This document shows, piece after piece, positions 57,701-63,684 of a stretch of DNA of 64,000 bases. Positions within the stretch are counted from its first letter, which is position 1. The number at the start of each line of letters is the position of its first letter. A program made the translations under genes and the position numbers. Below the pieces are notes generated by a model that worked only from the letters and a program-made list of their open reading frames with translations, was not told the DNA's origin and made no database searches. Source of the stretch: a bacterium (lineage in GTDB: Bacteria > Patescibacteriota > Gracilibacteria > Peribacterales > Peribacteraceae). The DNA lies in the NCBI GenBank assembly GCA_029558515.1, contig JAKQEM010000009.1, positions 42,186 through 106,185 on the forward strand, given 5' to 3'.

Positions 57701-57955
57701 TCAAACCGCCAGCTTCGCTATCGCAGATTTCTTCCGTGCGGCGTTGCTCGGGTGAATGAGATGCTTCTTCGCAGCCATGTCGATGGCCTTGTAGGTCTGG
57801 GGCAACAGCTTCACCACATCCTGCTTCTTCCCCGCTTTTGCGGCATCGATGACCTTCCGGATGGAAGACTTCATGAGCGACTTGACCGGCTGGAGCCGCT
57901 TGTTGCGGTCCCTGCTCTGGCGAGCGCGCTTCGTGGCGGATGCGGTGCGAGTCAT
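57701..57955 (-). CDS. rpsT: 30S ribosomal protein bS20
   Basis: bS20 is a three-helix 16S rRNA-binding protein. The basic N-terminus 'KRARQSRDRNKRLQPVKSLMKSSIRKV' and 'AAKKHLIHPSNAARKKSAIAKLAV' are diagnostic. The length of 84 aa is standard. TAGAGT lies about 30 nt upstream of the ATG, so unlike many neighbours it probably has a short leader. Confidence 0.96.
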   Translation of the reverse strand: MTRTASATKRARQSRDRNKRLQPVKSLMKSSIRKVIDAAKAGKKQDVVKLLPQTYKAIDMAAKKHLIHPSNAARKKSAIAKLAV

Positions 57956-58008
57956 AGAAAATCAGCGGAGAAAATGCCCGCAGACTCTACGGGAGGGGGA
58001 AAGGGGAG

Positions 58009-60585
58009 TCAAGGGAGCACTGCGGCGACCTCTTCCTCCAATTGCTTGTATTCGACACGAGCCTTTTCAAACGCAGCATCAAACGCGGAACCCTCACCCT
58101 GAACCCTGATGGGTTTCTTCGGATCCCATTGAGAAATGGACGGCAAATAGTGAGACAATGCAAACTGCTCGCCTTCCGTCCTTGCTTGATTCACCGTGCG
58201 AAGATTGACTCCGACGTTTCCCGGTTCCCGCTCGGGATCCGTAAAGAGATACTTGGGATCATTCAGCGGGAAAAGTTTATGAAATACTTGCTTGCTTGCG
58301 TCCATCTGTGCCTGCAGCTCAACAAGCCGACTCTTCAGGCGTACGACGTGCTCCGGAACGGAAGATCCGACCGGATACTGCTGCTTCAATGATTCCAACA
58401 TATGCTCGGAACCCTTTTGCATGAGAAGAGACTCCAACTGATTGCGTAAGTAAACCATTTCGATCTCATATCTTCGGGCATCCTTATTCCCATGTTTTTC
58501 CATCAATTCCACGGCAGCCAAAACTCCATCCAGTTCCGGCAGCGCTTGTAAACGATGATCACGCATGATGACACGAAGAAGATCCAGGCCTATCAACGCG
58601 ATGCCCGCCCCGCCCAGTACTCTTTTTCCGATTCTCAACCGAGAGAGAGGAACCTTGCGCGCAAGATTCGTCAATCCCGAAGCACTTCTCGTCGCCAAAC
58701 GCACTGCAGCGGGAGCATGTGTGATCGCAAACGGAACCCCCCTGCGCAACAGCAGGTAACCGCCTCCCGCCTCGGCTGATAGTACGGCGAGCGCATACAT
58801 TGTTTCTTTGAAAAATGCCTGCCCCAACTGCATCTCGATATCTCCGATATCAATATTCAGTGAAATGTTTTCCTGTAGTTTTCCCAAATATTCCTGAAGA
58901 GCGACATGCAAATCCTGCGGGAGTTTTGATTCCAATTGATAAAAAATATTTTCATACGCACCGGCATATTCCTCGTCCGTCTTCAAAGAATCAATCGCAG
59001 GCAATACATCGAACTGCATTGGATCGCCTGCAAGCGCAAGGTCCTCCGGCGGCTTAATTTTGATAAGAGATTGCAAATCATTCACCGCACTCTGCATGCG
59101 CTGTAAAATTTCACCATGTTTCTGTTTGTATTCGTTGATAATGGTCTGCACGCTGCGCAACCTTGCTTGCACCTCGGGAGTATTCCTCGCTTTGACTTGC
59201 TCCTCCGAAGAGAGATCGGAATAGTTATCCGGTAATCCCAATCGCTTATAGATTGGGGCAAGAATAGCCTGCGTACGTGCTTCACGAATATCAAAATCCA
59301 AACCAACCGTTCCCCATGCCGCATCATGCACACCCCACAAATAAGTAGCATTGCGAGCAATGGGTTCCGCCAACGCAAGTTTACTCGGAATGACATGCGT
59401 CGTCATGATGTCTTCAATGATGAGTGAAGGATCCAATTGCACGTTCCCGATCACCGGCACATCGATTGATTTATTCTGCCGTAGTACGACCGATCGCATG
59501 TAATGCACATAATCCTGCAACGATTGAATATGTGCATCGCGTTCACGCGTCAGAGCTTCACGATCGGGTGGCTGGAGCGGCCCATAAGGACGAACGGAAG
59601 GACCTGCCGCATCGGAATCATCCACCGGCAATCCGAAATGGCTTTCCCGCGTGAGAAGCGACGTCTTTTGCGCTTCATTCGACAGGGAGCGTATGTGAAA
59701 TGAAAGAGCATGATCGAGCAGTCGCTCCTGTTCTTTCATAAGCTCGGTTTTCTTTTGTTCCGCAGCGGTGGATGCATCGCCCGCCAACTGCATTCTTCTT
59801 TGCACAATTTCGTCGAATTGACGCATAATCGCCGCACGATGCAATGCGAGAATTTTCGGCGTGCGCAATTTTTTTTGCTTTATTTCATCGGAAGGTGTTC
59901 CTAAAATCACACGAACTTGCTCACGGATGGAACCGGCTAATTCCGATCGATCCATCGAACGTTCCTCAGGCGTGAGCTTCGCGAGCAAAGACGCAATCTG
60001 CATTCGAAGTTGCGGATTTTCAGGTTGTAAAGACAATCGATATTCCTGAATGGAGAGTCGACGCACAACGATTAGTTTTGGCAATACGACAAACAGCGCA
60101 TCTCGCTGCGCCAACACTTCCTGTTCCATCTTCATATCACGTGGCACACCACCGTCCTTCTCCGGTTGGTCCAATTTGAATTGCGTACGATAGTCTTCGT
60201 AATCCAGAATTCCCACGGTTAATTCCTGCAGTGCCGCATCCTCGTACTGCCAATAGGTGATTCGTCTGTCCAGATCCTTCAATATTTGCACATCCTTTTG
60301 CTGCAAATCCCGTATCCGTGCATCGCCAACGCCCAATTTTTGCCGCAAGCGCATGCGCTCCAACACTGCCAAATACATACTGCGCTCGATATCGGTATCA
60401 TACGAAAGGGCATCAATATTTTTATCAATCTCCTCGATACGTTGCTGAATTTCTTTGGCAGAATAGGGTTCACCTTTCTCATTTCTGTCTTGCCACTGAT
60501 GCAAAAGACTCTGCTCTCTGCCTCCACTCAATGTACGAACATCATCTGCCGAACTTCGAAGTTCTGAGGGCTGATCGGTTGACAT
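58009..60585 (-). CDS. Large coiled-coil protein with central membrane segment, unknown
   Basis: An 858-aa protein that I do not recognise. Residues 1-600 are predominantly charged helices (for example 'KEIQQRIEEIDKNIDAL', 'QRDALFVVLPKLIVVRRLSIQEYRL', 'VQTIINEYKQKHGEIL'). Hydrophobic stretches lie around 610-690 ('ALAVLSAEAGGGYLLLRRGVPFAI', 'VLGGAGIALIGLDLL'), then another coiled coil ('QLESLLMQKGSEHMLESLKQQYP'). It is the last gene of a three-gene operon, 19 nt after the preceding stop. ATG 60585 (MSTDQPSEL) is preferred over the track start. It may be a membrane-linked scaffold; no enzyme motif is seen. Confidence 0.75.
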   Translation of the reverse strand: MSTDQPSELRSSADDVRTLSGGREQSLLHQWQDRNEKGEPYSAKEIQQRIEEIDKNIDALSYDTDIERSMYLAVLERMRLRQKLGVGDARIRDLQQKDVQILKDLDRRITYWQYEDAALQELTVGILDYEDYRTQFKLDQPEKDGGVPRDMKMEQEVLAQRDALFVVLPKLIVVRRLSIQEYRLSLQPENPQLRMQIASLLAKLTPEERSMDRSELAGSIREQVRVILGTPSDEIKQKKLRTPKILALHRAAIMRQFDEIVQRRMQLAGDASTAAEQKKTELMKEQERLLDHALSFHIRSLSNEAQKTSLLTRESHFGLPVDDSDAAGPSVRPYGPLQPPDREALTRERDAHIQSLQDYVHYMRSVVLRQNKSIDVPVIGNVQLDPSLIIEDIMTTHVIPSKLALAEPIARNATYLWGVHDAAWGTVGLDFDIREARTQAILAPIYKRLGLPDNYSDLSSEEQVKARNTPEVQARLRSVQTIINEYKQKHGEILQRMQSAVNDLQSLIKIKPPEDLALAGDPMQFDVLPAIDSLKTDEEYAGAYENIFYQLESKLPQDLHVALQEYLGKLQENISLNIDIGDIEMQLGQAFFKETMYALAVLSAEAGGGYLLLRRGVPFAITHAPAAVRLATRSASGLTNLARKVPLSRLRIGKRVLGGAGIALIGLDLLRVIMRDHRLQALPELDGVLAAVELMEKHGNKDARRYEIEMVYLRNQLESLLMQKGSEHMLESLKQQYPVGSSVPEHVVRLKSRLVELQAQMDASKQVFHKLFPLNDPKYLFTDPEREPGNVGVNLRTVNQARTEGEQFALSHYLPSISQWDPKKPIRVQGEGSAFDAAFEKARVEYKQLEEEVAAVLP

Positions 60586-60604
60586 GTGTTTGTGTAAAAA
60601 TGAA

Positions 60605-61180
60605 TTAATTGCCGATAGGCACCCCGTTGTACGGGTTGAAATCCGGCATCTGCCCGATACCATTATTGATGATATCGCTCCCTTCCAAAAAATCCTTGAT
60701 CACCTCCACGGCAACTCCCGCCTGCGCAAGCTGCAAATATCCCGACAGATATAAAGCACCGCCCACTCCCCCGGCCAAAAGAGTCAGCACACCCATCGTG
60801 GTCACTACCGGATGCTTACACGCAAACCCCTTCACGCTCTCCCACGCCCTGCGGAACATGCCTTTCTTCTCGGGCGATTGAATATCCTGCAGATAGCGTT
60901 CATTGGCAACCAACGTTTCCCCGACCTCATCCAGCTGCTTTTGCAGAAGCTCCGGTTGAAAATCCGCATGGTCCTTGCGCAAATCCTCTTCATGTTCCAG
61001 AAGCTGACGCACCAGCGCCTGACGACCTTCCACGCTCTTCATCTGAGTCTCGACTTCCTCTTGCTTGATCTCCAAGTACTGAGAGATGCGATTGGGCGTG
61101 GGAATGAACGGACGCAACTGTTCCACGCCGCCATCCGTCGCGCGGGGGATTTCTACGGTACCGGTCGGATCAAATGCCAT
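60605..61180 (-). CDS. Coiled-coil membrane protein of the unknown operon
   Basis: A 191-aa protein: a proline-containing N-terminus, a long coiled coil (residues about 28-100: 'YLEIKQEEVETQMKSVEGRQALVRQLLEHEEDL'), then a hydrophobic region ('HPVVTTMGVLTLLAGGVGGALYLSGYL') and a short C-terminal tail. It starts 4 nt after the stop of the upstream gene, so translation is coupled. The coiled-coil-plus-membrane-hairpin layout matches its larger downstream neighbour, suggesting they form one complex. No family is recognised. Confidence 0.7.
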   Translation of the reverse strand: MAFDPTGTVEIPRATDGGVEQLRPFIPTPNRISQYLEIKQEEVETQMKSVEGRQALVRQLLEHEEDLRKDHADFQPELLQKQLDEVGETLVANERYLQDIQSPEKKGMFRRAWESVKGFACKHPVVTTMGVLTLLAGGVGGALYLSGYLQLAQAGVAVEVIKDFLEGSDIINNGIGQMPDFNPYNGVPIGN

Positions 61181-61184
61181 GGAA

Positions 61185-61604
61185 TCAGCGGGAAACGGGT
61201 TGAAGAGACGCAAGTACGGAGTGCCGGATGACGGTGAGCGCCGTAATGCCTTCGATGTCCGTATCCGTTTTGACCGTTCGGAGGAGCGCGGCGATCAGCA
61301 GGGAGAGCGTCACGGGCCCCAAAGCGAAAAAGAGTTCCGCCAGATCGCCTTCATCGACATCTTTCAGATCAATGCTTTCCATGAGGACGGCGATTTCCTC
61401 CGCCGATTGCGCCTGCTTAGCCTGCTCACGGAACGCGAGCAGTTTGGGATCATGCAAGCGCAGAAGCGACAGTCGAATCATCCGCCTCTGCGGCGTGTCC
61501 TCATACGACAGCGTTTCCGCCTCCGTCTCCCATCCCTCCCTGAGAGCATCAGGCAGAGTATCGAAGAGCACCTGTTCCTGCATCGTGAGATGAAGAGTGC
61601 GCAT
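61185..61604 (-). CDS. Small C-terminal-membrane protein heading the unknown operon
   Basis: A 139-aa protein with an acidic helical N-terminal domain ('MRTLHLTMQEQVLFDTLPDALREGWETEAE', 'LHDPKLLAFREQAKQAQSAEEIAVLMESIDL') and a hydrophobic C-terminal helix ('LFFALGPVTLSLLIAALL'). TATACT ends 8 nt before the ATG at 61604, so the track's extra 100 residues are rejected. It is divergent from glmS with 97 bp between starts. It is the first gene of the three-gene unit, so its promoter drives the operon. Confidence 0.7.
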   Translation of the reverse strand: MRTLHLTMQEQVLFDTLPDALREGWETEAETLSYEDTPQRRMIRLSLLRLHDPKLLAFREQAKQAQSAEEIAVLMESIDLKDVDEGDLAELFFALGPVTLSLLIAALLRTVKTDTDIEGITALTVIRHSVLASLQPVSR

Positions 61605-61701
61605 ACGATTGCAGTATACTCCGAATATCACCATCGAGGAAGCCGCAATCCGCCATTCTTCCTCGTTGACCTGACCCCAAAGCTCCCTACAATACGCACA
61701 T

Positions 61702-63477
61702 ATGTGCGGAATTTTCGGATACGTCGGCCCGCGGAAGGACGCGGTGGAAATGGCGGTGGAAGGGCTGAAGAGCTTGGAATACCGCGGATACGATTCCTGG
61801 GGCGTTGCATGGAAGGAATCGCAGTTTCTGAACGTGCACAAGGAAACCGGGAAGATCAGCGGCATCGACGGAAAGACGCTGGCGGGGGAATGTTCGCTCG
61901 TCATCGGTCACACGCGCTGGGCCACGCACGGCGGCGTTACGGTGGCAAACGCTCATCCGCACCTCAATGCAGACCGCACCATCGCCGTGGTCCATAACGG
62001 CATCATTGAAAACTACCAGGAACTCCGCGACGAACTGAAGGCAAAAGGGCACGTGTTCCTTTCGCAAACGGATTCGGAAATCATTCCGCACCTCATCGAC
62101 GAAGAACTGAAAACGACCGGTGATTTCGCCCATGCCGTCCGACGCACATGCCTCCGTTTTCAAGGAAGGTACGCCATCGTCGCCGTGCATACGAAAAGCG
62201 AGAGCATCGTCGCCGCGCGCACCGGATCGCCGCTGATTATCGGCAAGGAGAAGGGCGGGGGATACTTCATCGCATCCGATACGCCCGCATTCCTGAAGCA
62301 CACGCGCACCGTGCAGTACCTCGATGACGGCGAAATGGCGGTGACCGACGGCCGGAGCATCCTCATTTCGGACATTGCGACGGGAGAGGAACGCCTCAAG
62401 CGCGAGATTGAAATTCGTTGGACAGCCGATGAAGCGCAGAAAGGAGACTTCGCGCACTTCATGATCAAAGAAATCATGGACCAGAAAGAGAGCGTCGCGC
62501 GCGCCGTCAATCAGAGTGACGAAGAAATTCTCACGCTGGCTGATGCGATTCGCAACGCAAAGGGCACGTTCCTCTCCGGCTGCGGCACGGCGGGCATGGC
62601 CTGCAGAGCGGGGGAGTACTTCCTCTCCATCGTCGCGCACAAGCACGTCAACTTCGCTCCTGCCAGTGAATTCAAATTATTTCATGGCTTCCTGCAGCCT
62701 GAAAGCCTTCTTATCGTCGTTTCCCAGAGCGGCGAAACGGCCGATGTCCTGGAAGCGATGCAGGTCGCCAAGAGCGCGGGAGCCAAGGTGCTCTCCATTG
62801 TGAACGTCCAGGGATCCTCCATCGACCGCGCATCCGATTACACGCTGCGCATCAACGCGGGCCCCGAGCGTGCCGTCGCATCGACGAAAGCACTGACCGG
62901 ACAACTGGCGGTACTGCTGCTCATTGCGTACGCGTTGGACGGGGGAGTGGCGCAGGGGAAGAAAGTTCTGTTGGAAACCGCCGCGCAGATCAACGACATG
63001 TTGAACCCACGCTACGTCGTTTTTCTGAAGGAAATTGCCGAACGCATTAAAGACAGCAAAGATCTCTACATCATCGGCAAGGGTTGGAATTATCCGATGG
63101 CCATGGAGAGCGCAATCAAAATTCAGGAGGTCAGCAACATTCATGCGGAAGGATTCGCTGCCGGCGAACTCAAGCACGGACCCATCGGACTGGTGGAGGA
63201 AGGGACGCCCTGCATCGTACTGGCAGGCTCTGACGAAGTCCTCCCCGATATCATCAGCAATGCCGTACAGCTGAAAGCCCGCGGCGGATTCATCATCGGC
63301 GTCTCGCCCGTCAATAACGAAGCCTTCGACGTGTGGATCAAAGTGCCGGACGCCGGCACCGCGCAACCCATCGTCAACATCATTCCCGTCCAGGTGCTGG
63401 CCTACGAACTGGCTCTGGCACGAGGAAAAGATCCCGATATGCCGAGGAACCTTGCCAAAAGTGTGACAGTGAAGTAA
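61702..63477 (+). CDS. glmS: Glutamine-fructose-6-phosphate aminotransferase GlmS
   Basis: GlmS makes glucosamine-6-phosphate, the first step to UDP-GlcNAc for peptidoglycan. The N-terminal glutaminase uses Cys2 ('MCGIFGYVG'), with 'HTRWATHGGV' and 'HNGIIENYQELR'. Two SIS isomerase domains follow ('VSQSGETADVLEAM', 'ELKHGPIGLVE'). The length is 591 aa. TACAAT ends 8 nt before the ATG. No glmS ribozyme can precede it because the predicted leader is absent. Confidence 0.97.
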   Translation: MCGIFGYVGPRKDAVEMAVEGLKSLEYRGYDSWGVAWKESQFLNVHKETGKISGIDGKTLAGECSLVIGHTRWATHGGVTVANAHPHLNADRTIAVVHNGIIENYQELRDELKAKGHVFLSQTDSEIIPHLIDEELKTTGDFAHAVRRTCLRFQGRYAIVAVHTKSESIVAARTGSPLIIGKEKGGGYFIASDTPAFLKHTRTVQYLDDGEMAVTDGRSILISDIATGEERLKREIEIRWTADEAQKGDFAHFMIKEIMDQKESVARAVNQSDEEILTLADAIRNAKGTFLSGCGTAGMACRAGEYFLSIVAHKHVNFAPASEFKLFHGFLQPESLLIVVSQSGETADVLEAMQVAKSAGAKVLSIVNVQGSSIDRASDYTLRINAGPERAVASTKALTGQLAVLLLIAYALDGGVAQGKKVLLETAAQINDMLNPRYVVFLKEIAERIKDSKDLYIIGKGWNYPMAMESAIKIQEVSNIHAEGFAAGELKHGPIGLVEEGTPCIVLAGSDEVLPDIISNAVQLKARGGFIIGVSPVNNEAFDVWIKVPDAGTAQPIVNIIPVQVLAYELALARGKDPDMPRNLAKSVTVK

Positions 63478-63486
63478 TGAAAATGA

Positions 63487-63684
63487 CTACCTGTAGATCT
63501 CGCTGCGATGACCGATATCGATCACAATGTACTTATCTTCACTCTGATGCGTCAAAATCAATCGATAGTCTCCAATACGTAATCGGTGAGTCGCAGGCAA
63601 AGCATCATGCAACGCCCGCATTGATCGATCATCATGCGCAGCTTGAAGCGATTGTAACTTCTTCAACACTCTCTGCTGAATCAA
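63487..63684 (-). CDS. RelE/ParE-type toxin, N-terminus uncertain
   Basis: The C-terminal motifs of the RelE/ParE/Txe fold are present ('RLRIGDYRLILTHQ' and 'IVIDIGHRSEIYR'), and 'LIQQRVLKKLQSLQ' is the usual first helix. The track start is TTG at 63684, but the same frame extends upstream through 'HEFPISPKKRFGKLAP', which looks like the missing first strand and helix. The only possible start there is ATT (63735), just where the transposase region begins. The gene may have lost its start to that insertion. No antitoxin is visible in the window. Confidence 0.55.
   Translation of the reverse strand: MIQQRVLKKLQSLQAAHDDRSMRALHDALPATHRLRIGDYRLILTHQSEDKYIVIDIGHRSEIYR

What the first reader, a model, noticed from the sequence alone, without database searches (positions are those of the whole stretch)
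58009..61604. Operon of three unrecognised coiled-coil membrane proteins
The genes encode 139, 191 and 858 aa. They are spaced 4 and 19 nt apart under one leaderless-type promoter, and all combine charged helices with hydrophobic segments. This looks like a dedicated membrane complex, possibly an envelope scaffold or attachment apparatus. No domain was recognised in any of them.
Basis: partly seen in the sequence, partly recalled or inferred. Interest (0 to 1): 0.62.

Follow-up and report, generated by a model that had tools for sequence, protein, structure and literature searches.

The report
Swappable three-gene cassette in Peribacteria
These three neighbouring genes form a previously unrecognised, fast-changing gene set that Peribacteria carry, lose and swap at fixed places in their chromosome; it looks like an accessory system for dealing with other organisms or viruses rather than part of the cell's permanent skeleton, but its function has not been shown.

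Summary
In detail: ORFs of 139 (A), 191 (B) and 858 aa (C), 4 and 19 nt apart, minus strand, with a leaderless-type -10 before A. Relatives show they are real and belong together: A is directly followed by B or another small one-span protein in 65 of 68 assessable loci, and C usually follows; dN/dS is about 0.05-0.37. B and C are membrane-linked. A is not: AlphaFold2 gives a compact soluble fold (pLDDT 95) with no PDB or viral match. No family, phage, plasmid or structure search recognised any of the three. The 'permanent scaffold' reading fails. The set is absent from 19 of 74 family genomes, where the sites checked are usually closed (rpsT next to glmS). It sits at alternative sites, and alleles differ wholesale between relatives whose flanking genes are 91-100% identical. 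C is modular, about 790 to 3052 aa. Four genomes from other families of the class carry diverged copies in the same A-B-C order. Best reading: an undescribed, exchangeable, membrane-anchored cassette under strong diversification, more likely a biotic-conflict (defence) or partner-interaction system than a structural part. Function is inferred, not shown.

The parts
61185..61604 (-). Gene A, 139 aa, predicted soluble adaptor-like protein (not membrane); glycine 96 and arginine 127 invariant in 67 relatives
   Evidence: AlphaFold2 pLDDT 95.1, pTM 0.88; no fold match
60605..61180 (-). Gene B, 191 aa, single-span membrane protein, helical part inferred inside, proline-rich tail (short in the window) inferred outside
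60752..60808 (-). Predicted transmembrane segment of B (residues 125-143)
   Evidence: hydrophobicity and charge pattern conserved in 50+ relatives
58009..60585 (-). Gene C, 858 aa, large helical protein, short-type C-terminus
   Evidence: AlphaFold2 pLDDT 70.7, pTM 0.59
58927..59523 (-). C middle module M (residues 355-553), shared by 35 loci
   Evidence: iterated profile search
58456..58908 (-). C hydrophobic module T (residues 560-710), shared by 30 loci; weaker hydrophobicity in the window than in most relatives
58012..58518 (-). C short C-terminal module E (residues 690-858), shared by 6 loci; replaced by an unrelated module of about 900 aa in about 20 loci
61613..61618 (-). -10 element TATACT, 14 nt before the A start codon (leaderless-type promoter)
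   Evidence: sequence; family-wide enrichment
57956..61701 (.). Interval between rpsT (57701-57955) and glmS (61702-63477) occupied by the cassette; in 11 of 12 checked family genomes without A these two genes are direct neighbours

Best explanation
A-B-C is an undescribed accessory cassette, exchanged between Peribacteria lineages and placed between housekeeping genes at a few recurrent chromosomal sites. It encodes a membrane-anchored complex: A a soluble cytoplasmic adaptor, B a one-span tether with its helical part inside and its proline-rich tail outside, and C a large modular helical protein held at the membrane by its hydrophobic segment. Shown from sequence: the operon, its order, conservation, absence, relocation, replacement, and the modularity of C. 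Predicted: A's fold and B's topology. Inferred: that the three proteins touch one another, and that variation in C gives specificity against a changing biological partner. Because A is soluble and C of the window has no signal peptide, I think an inward-facing conflict system (anti-phage or anti-invader defence) is somewhat more likely than a surface adhesin. Function is untested; the confidence is for the biotic-interaction reading with defence as the favoured form (defence alone about 0.3).
For: A followed by B or another small one-span protein in 65 of 68 assessable loci; conserved spacing; purifying selection; empty sites; alternative sites; allelic replacement with LepA 97% and L19 100% identical but A 30%, B unalignable, C present in one only, with breakpoints near the csaB 3' end and about 65 bp before lepA; C synonymous divergence half that of lepA in one pair; modular C of about 790-3052 aa; A soluble; B bitopic; same order in four genomes of other families of the class.
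Against: No PADLOC match, no enzymatic domain or known effector, no association with known defence genes was shown, no interaction data. Where alignable, C is under purifying, not positive, selection. C's topology is unclear and its charges could place the N-terminal part outside. A composition classifier could not place C. Fast exchange is also expected of surface proteins.
Confidence: 0.4

Rival explanations
1. A surface or partner-contact apparatus: part of B and C lies outside the membrane and helps these presumed symbionts bind or recognise other cells; C varies because partners differ.
For: B's tail is proline-rich and inferred outside; charges around C's hydrophobic segment would allow its N-terminal part outside; C is nearly free of cysteine; one relative (L075) has a signal-like N-terminus; variable large exported proteins are described in Peribacter (PMC4736985); the cassette often follows csaB, a cell-wall polymer enzyme family by resemblance.
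Against: C of the window and almost all relatives lack a signal peptide; A is soluble; csaB stays when the cassette is absent.
Confidence: 0.3
2. A standing envelope or cell-organisation scaffold: the three proteins build a fixed membrane structure.
For: Membrane anchoring, helical architecture, common in the family (55 of 74 genomes), purifying selection.
Against: Absent from 19 of 74 genomes including nearly complete ones, with sites closed; wholesale replacement and loss of C between close relatives; size of C varies about fourfold.
Confidence: 0.15
3. A relic or domesticated phage tail or injection part: A (and B) as chaperones, C as a tape-measure-like protein.
For: Small genes before a long helical protein with a hydrophobic segment and variable length; a weak Pfam match of B to a tail assembly chaperone model, below its cut-off (E 0.0065).
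Against: No PHROGs match beyond chance; none in IMG/VR for A nor in phage records for A or C; no viral fold match for A; no tail genes in any locus examined.
Confidence: 0.05

Closest known systems
Large strain-variable proteins of Ca. Peribacter riflensis (PMC4736985)
   Same: Same lineage; large proteins, variation between close relatives, suggested link to partners.
   Different: Those are described as mostly signal-peptide-bearing and often cysteine-rich; window C has no signal peptide and no cysteine, and is one of a three-gene unit. Whether any of the reported proteins is a C was not checked.
Giant membrane proteins of Vampirococcus lugosii (PMC8080830)
   Same: Very large membrane-associated proteins in a related CPR group, thought to act in recognition of the host.
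   Different: Those carry known adhesion or interaction domains; no domain is recognised in C, and no A-B partner genes are described.
Exchangeable anti-phage defence loci (known kinds in PADLOC)
   Same: Patchy presence, recurrent sites, replacement with conserved flanks (resemblance in behaviour, from general knowledge).
   Different: No component matches any PADLOC model and no effector domain is seen.
Phage tape-measure protein with tail assembly chaperones
   Same: Small gene(s) before a long helical protein with a hydrophobic segment and variable length.
   Different: No sequence match to phage proteins, no viral fold match for A, and no other tail genes.

Membership tests
Known anti-phage defence system (PADLOC) | Component matches a curated defence model | tested here: not met
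   A, B, C and two giant C relatives: 0 families at E <= 0.1
Known anti-phage defence system (PADLOC) | Patchy presence and allelic exchange at recurrent sites | tested here: met
   a shared behaviour, not proof of membership
Known anti-phage defence system (PADLOC) | Protects against phage | not testable with these tools
   Needs an infection assay
Phage tail tape-measure module | Neighbouring tail genes or viral homologues | tested here: not met
   A predicted soluble, pLDDT 95
   a few loci lack C
   No multimer prediction available; genetic linkage only
Surface adhesin or attachment protein | Signal peptide or recognised adhesion domain in C | tested here: not met
   No Pfam domain in C or three giant relatives; no N-terminal hydrophobic segment in C of the window or nearly all relatives
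Surface adhesin or attachment protein | Exposed on the cell surface | tested here: inconclusive
   Charge pattern and composition are ambiguous

The most novel reading that the evidence does not exclude
A-B-C is a new class of membrane-anchored, hypervariable recognition-and-response system (most likely anti-phage or anti-competitor) present in this CPR class, with an adaptor of unmatched fold (A) and a giant modular variable component (C) swapped between strains at housekeeping loci.
Probability: 0.3. Interest if true: 0.85.

Novelty: categorically new. Interest (0 to 1): 0.6.

Why it matters
CPR genomes are full of unrecognised genes. Here three of them are shown to be one unit that comes, goes and is replaced between close relatives, which marks a system under pressure from other organisms or viruses rather than a housekeeping part. 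A is a small protein with a confident model and no PDB match, easy to test in the laboratory; empty and filled sites give natural controls; and variation in C may point to what these bacteria contend with. 'Categorically new' refers to the gene families and their architecture: nothing in the libraries searched matches. The kind of function is not established, and AlphaFold DB could not be searched.

Tried and rejected
Family libraries gave only sub-threshold matches, judged chance: DAB2P_C, Phage_TAC_3, Hemagglutinin in Pfam, and influenza HA2 in PDB at E 0.01. Foldseek of the A model (PDB, viral) and of the C model (PDB) gave nothing at E <= 0.001; the C model is only moderately confident. 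A scan of viral contigs gave no relative of A. A phage remnant was rejected for want of tail genes and viral matches. Composition-based localisation of C was inconclusive. Single-sequence search suggested C was rare (6 of 59 genomes); a profile raised this to 39 of 74 family genomes. A standing scaffold was rejected on empty sites and allelic replacement. Weak B-profile matches inside giant ORFs of other families were not counted; only loci where the A-B-C order could be read were. The terminator scan found no more sites than shuffles, so no terminator is claimed.

Full report
What was checked. The cassette lies between rpsT-ruvX and the divergent glmS. The window belongs to a 1.31-Mb, 49-contig genome of 99% completeness. 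Records of relatives carrying A are mostly named Ca. Peribacteria, Peribacteraceae or Peregrinibacteria, so the family is called Peribacteraceae here on that basis.

No known relatives. Pfam, NCBIfam, PHROGs, PADLOC and PDB sequence searches gave nothing above chance for any of the three, nor did Pfam for all 67 A homologues or for three giant C relatives. tblastn found no phage record for A or C and no plasmid record for C, and a scan of IMG/VR for A gave no relative.

Relatives and co-occurrence. Profile search finds A in 55 of 74 genomes of the family and in none of the other 279 genomes of the class searched. After reading 65 further loci with one gene caller, A is directly followed by a recognised B in 57 of 68 assessable cases and by another small one-span protein in 8 more. 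Most A-B gaps lie between -4 and +25 nt and most B-C gaps between 3 and 45 nt. C follows in most loci, but a few have A-B only (L067, L072, L090), and some carry tandem A-B pairs. Where alleles are close enough to align, dN/dS is 0.09-0.19 for A, 0.05-0.37 for B and 0.07-0.14 for C, so all three are real proteins under constraint.

Promoter. In the window TATACT starts 14 nt before the A start codon. A near-consensus -10 starts at -20 to -8 in 37 of 69 A genes, against 122 of 577 other genes in the same loci, 3 of 113 B/C genes and 8.5% of shuffles. It is commonest in the csaB-lepA context (26 of 34), often as TCTG[GC]TATAAT or close to it; at the window's own type of site only 3 of 9 have it.

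The proteins. A: AlphaFold2 with 67 homologues gives pLDDT 95 and pTM 0.88, a small alpha/beta fold; the hydrophobic stretch is part of one long helix, residues 85-110. No PDB or viral model matches at E <= 0.001. B: one predicted span in 50 of 57 homologues and two in 2 more, often preceded by HP, with several lysines or arginines before it and few after, and a tail averaging 12% proline: inferred N-inside, C-outside. C: mostly helical (pLDDT 71, so only the outline is usable; no PDB match). A middle module and a hydrophobic module are shared by 30-35 loci. The N-terminal part varies, and the C-terminal part is either the short module of the window (6 loci) or an unrelated module of about 900 aa (about 20 loci). 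In some genomes a second large gene follows C and shares parts of the long module. C lengths run from about 790 to 3052 aa. The orientation of C is unsettled: charges suggest that the C-terminal side of the segment is inside, which would put the N-terminal part outside, yet no signal peptide is seen.

An exchangeable cassette. (1) Absence with closed sites: in 11 of 12 checked family genomes without A, rpsT is the direct neighbour of glmS, and csaB is next to lepA in 12 of 14 checked genomes, including the window's own, whose cassette sits at glmS instead. (2) Alternative sites: glmS-rpsT, csaB-lepA, lysS-rplC and others. On a maximum-likelihood tree of A the site label needs 20 changes where 2 is the least possible; well-supported branches alone force at least 4-5 changes per site class. 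It is still clustered compared with shuffles, so moves are repeated but not constant. (3) Replacement in place: two genomes of one genus have LepA 97% and ribosomal L19 100% identical over the parts aligned, yet A is 30% identical, B does not align and only one has C. In other pairs with LepA at 90-95%, A is 34-81% identical and C is largely or wholly unalignable. DNA similarity ends near the 3' end of csaB and returns about 65 bp before lepA. (4) In one pair the synonymous divergence of C (0.66) is half that of lepA (1.40), as expected if C was exchanged later, although codon-usage differences were not modelled. None of this fits a standing scaffold.

Beyond the family. The B profile pointed to weak matches elsewhere in the class. 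In three of them (G336, G259, G314) the gene before B resembles the C-terminal part of A around its invariant glycine and arginine, and a large gene follows: the same A-B-C order. The A-profile E-values are 2.8e-7, 1e-4 and 0.003 in a search of only five proteins, so the weakest rests mainly on gene order. Two of their C proteins are related to each other (E 3e-43). A profile from these three found a fourth such genome (G246) and one weak, unconvincing match among 287 genomes sampled from the phylum.

Interpretation. Shown: one unit, real proteins, dispensable, relocated and replaced, C modular. Predicted: A soluble with an unmatched fold, B bitopic. Inferred: the three act together at the membrane, and variation in C sets specificity against a changing biological partner. 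The pattern is that of conflict or partner-recognition genes. I lean to defence because A and window C have no export signal, but surface contact is close behind: published work stresses variable large exported proteins in Peribacteria (PMC4736985) and giant surface proteins in a related predator (PMC8080830). No assay of any kind bears on function.

Limits. Genomes are mostly drafts and one per species, so allele swaps within a species were not seen. Gene starts in relatives come from a simple caller. AlphaFold DB was not available. Transmembrane calls rest on hydrophobicity scales, not a trained predictor. Absence from other classes was tested only with a three-sequence profile.

Noticed in passing
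L109:7588-9576, L111:831-4118, L113:8143-10454: In one genus (G071-G073) tandem A genes, each followed by a small protein usually with one span, sit just before rplC of the ribosomal protein cluster and carry no C.
   Followed up: partly
L161:5005-10143 and L162:5409-10340: G018 carries two further C relatives (1712 and 1643 aa) without A or B next to them; one sits exactly between csaB and lepA.
   Followed up: no
L156:4534-8652: The C-position protein of G336 appears to hold several copies of a repeat of very roughly 200 aa in its C-terminal half.
   Followed up: no
L075:958-4660 region, and L080, L094, L097, L106: In several genomes C is followed by a second large gene; in L080 and L097 it shares parts of the long C modules, as if the long form were split. 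The L075 C has a signal-like N-terminus.
   Followed up: partly
63487-63684 (minus): A 65-aa ORF downstream of glmS ends in a sequence that resembles a RelE/ParE-type toxin from memory; not tested.
   Followed up: no
L121 (JAIPIN010000009.1): A contig titled Kiritimatiellales bacterium carries A and belongs, by its length and hit, to the same family as the other loci (G090); its public label looks wrong.
   Followed up: no
L128-L139, glmS upstream regions: Several relatives show a TTGAC box and a TATAAT-like box just before the glmS start codon, so leaderless starts may be common in this family.
   Followed up: partly
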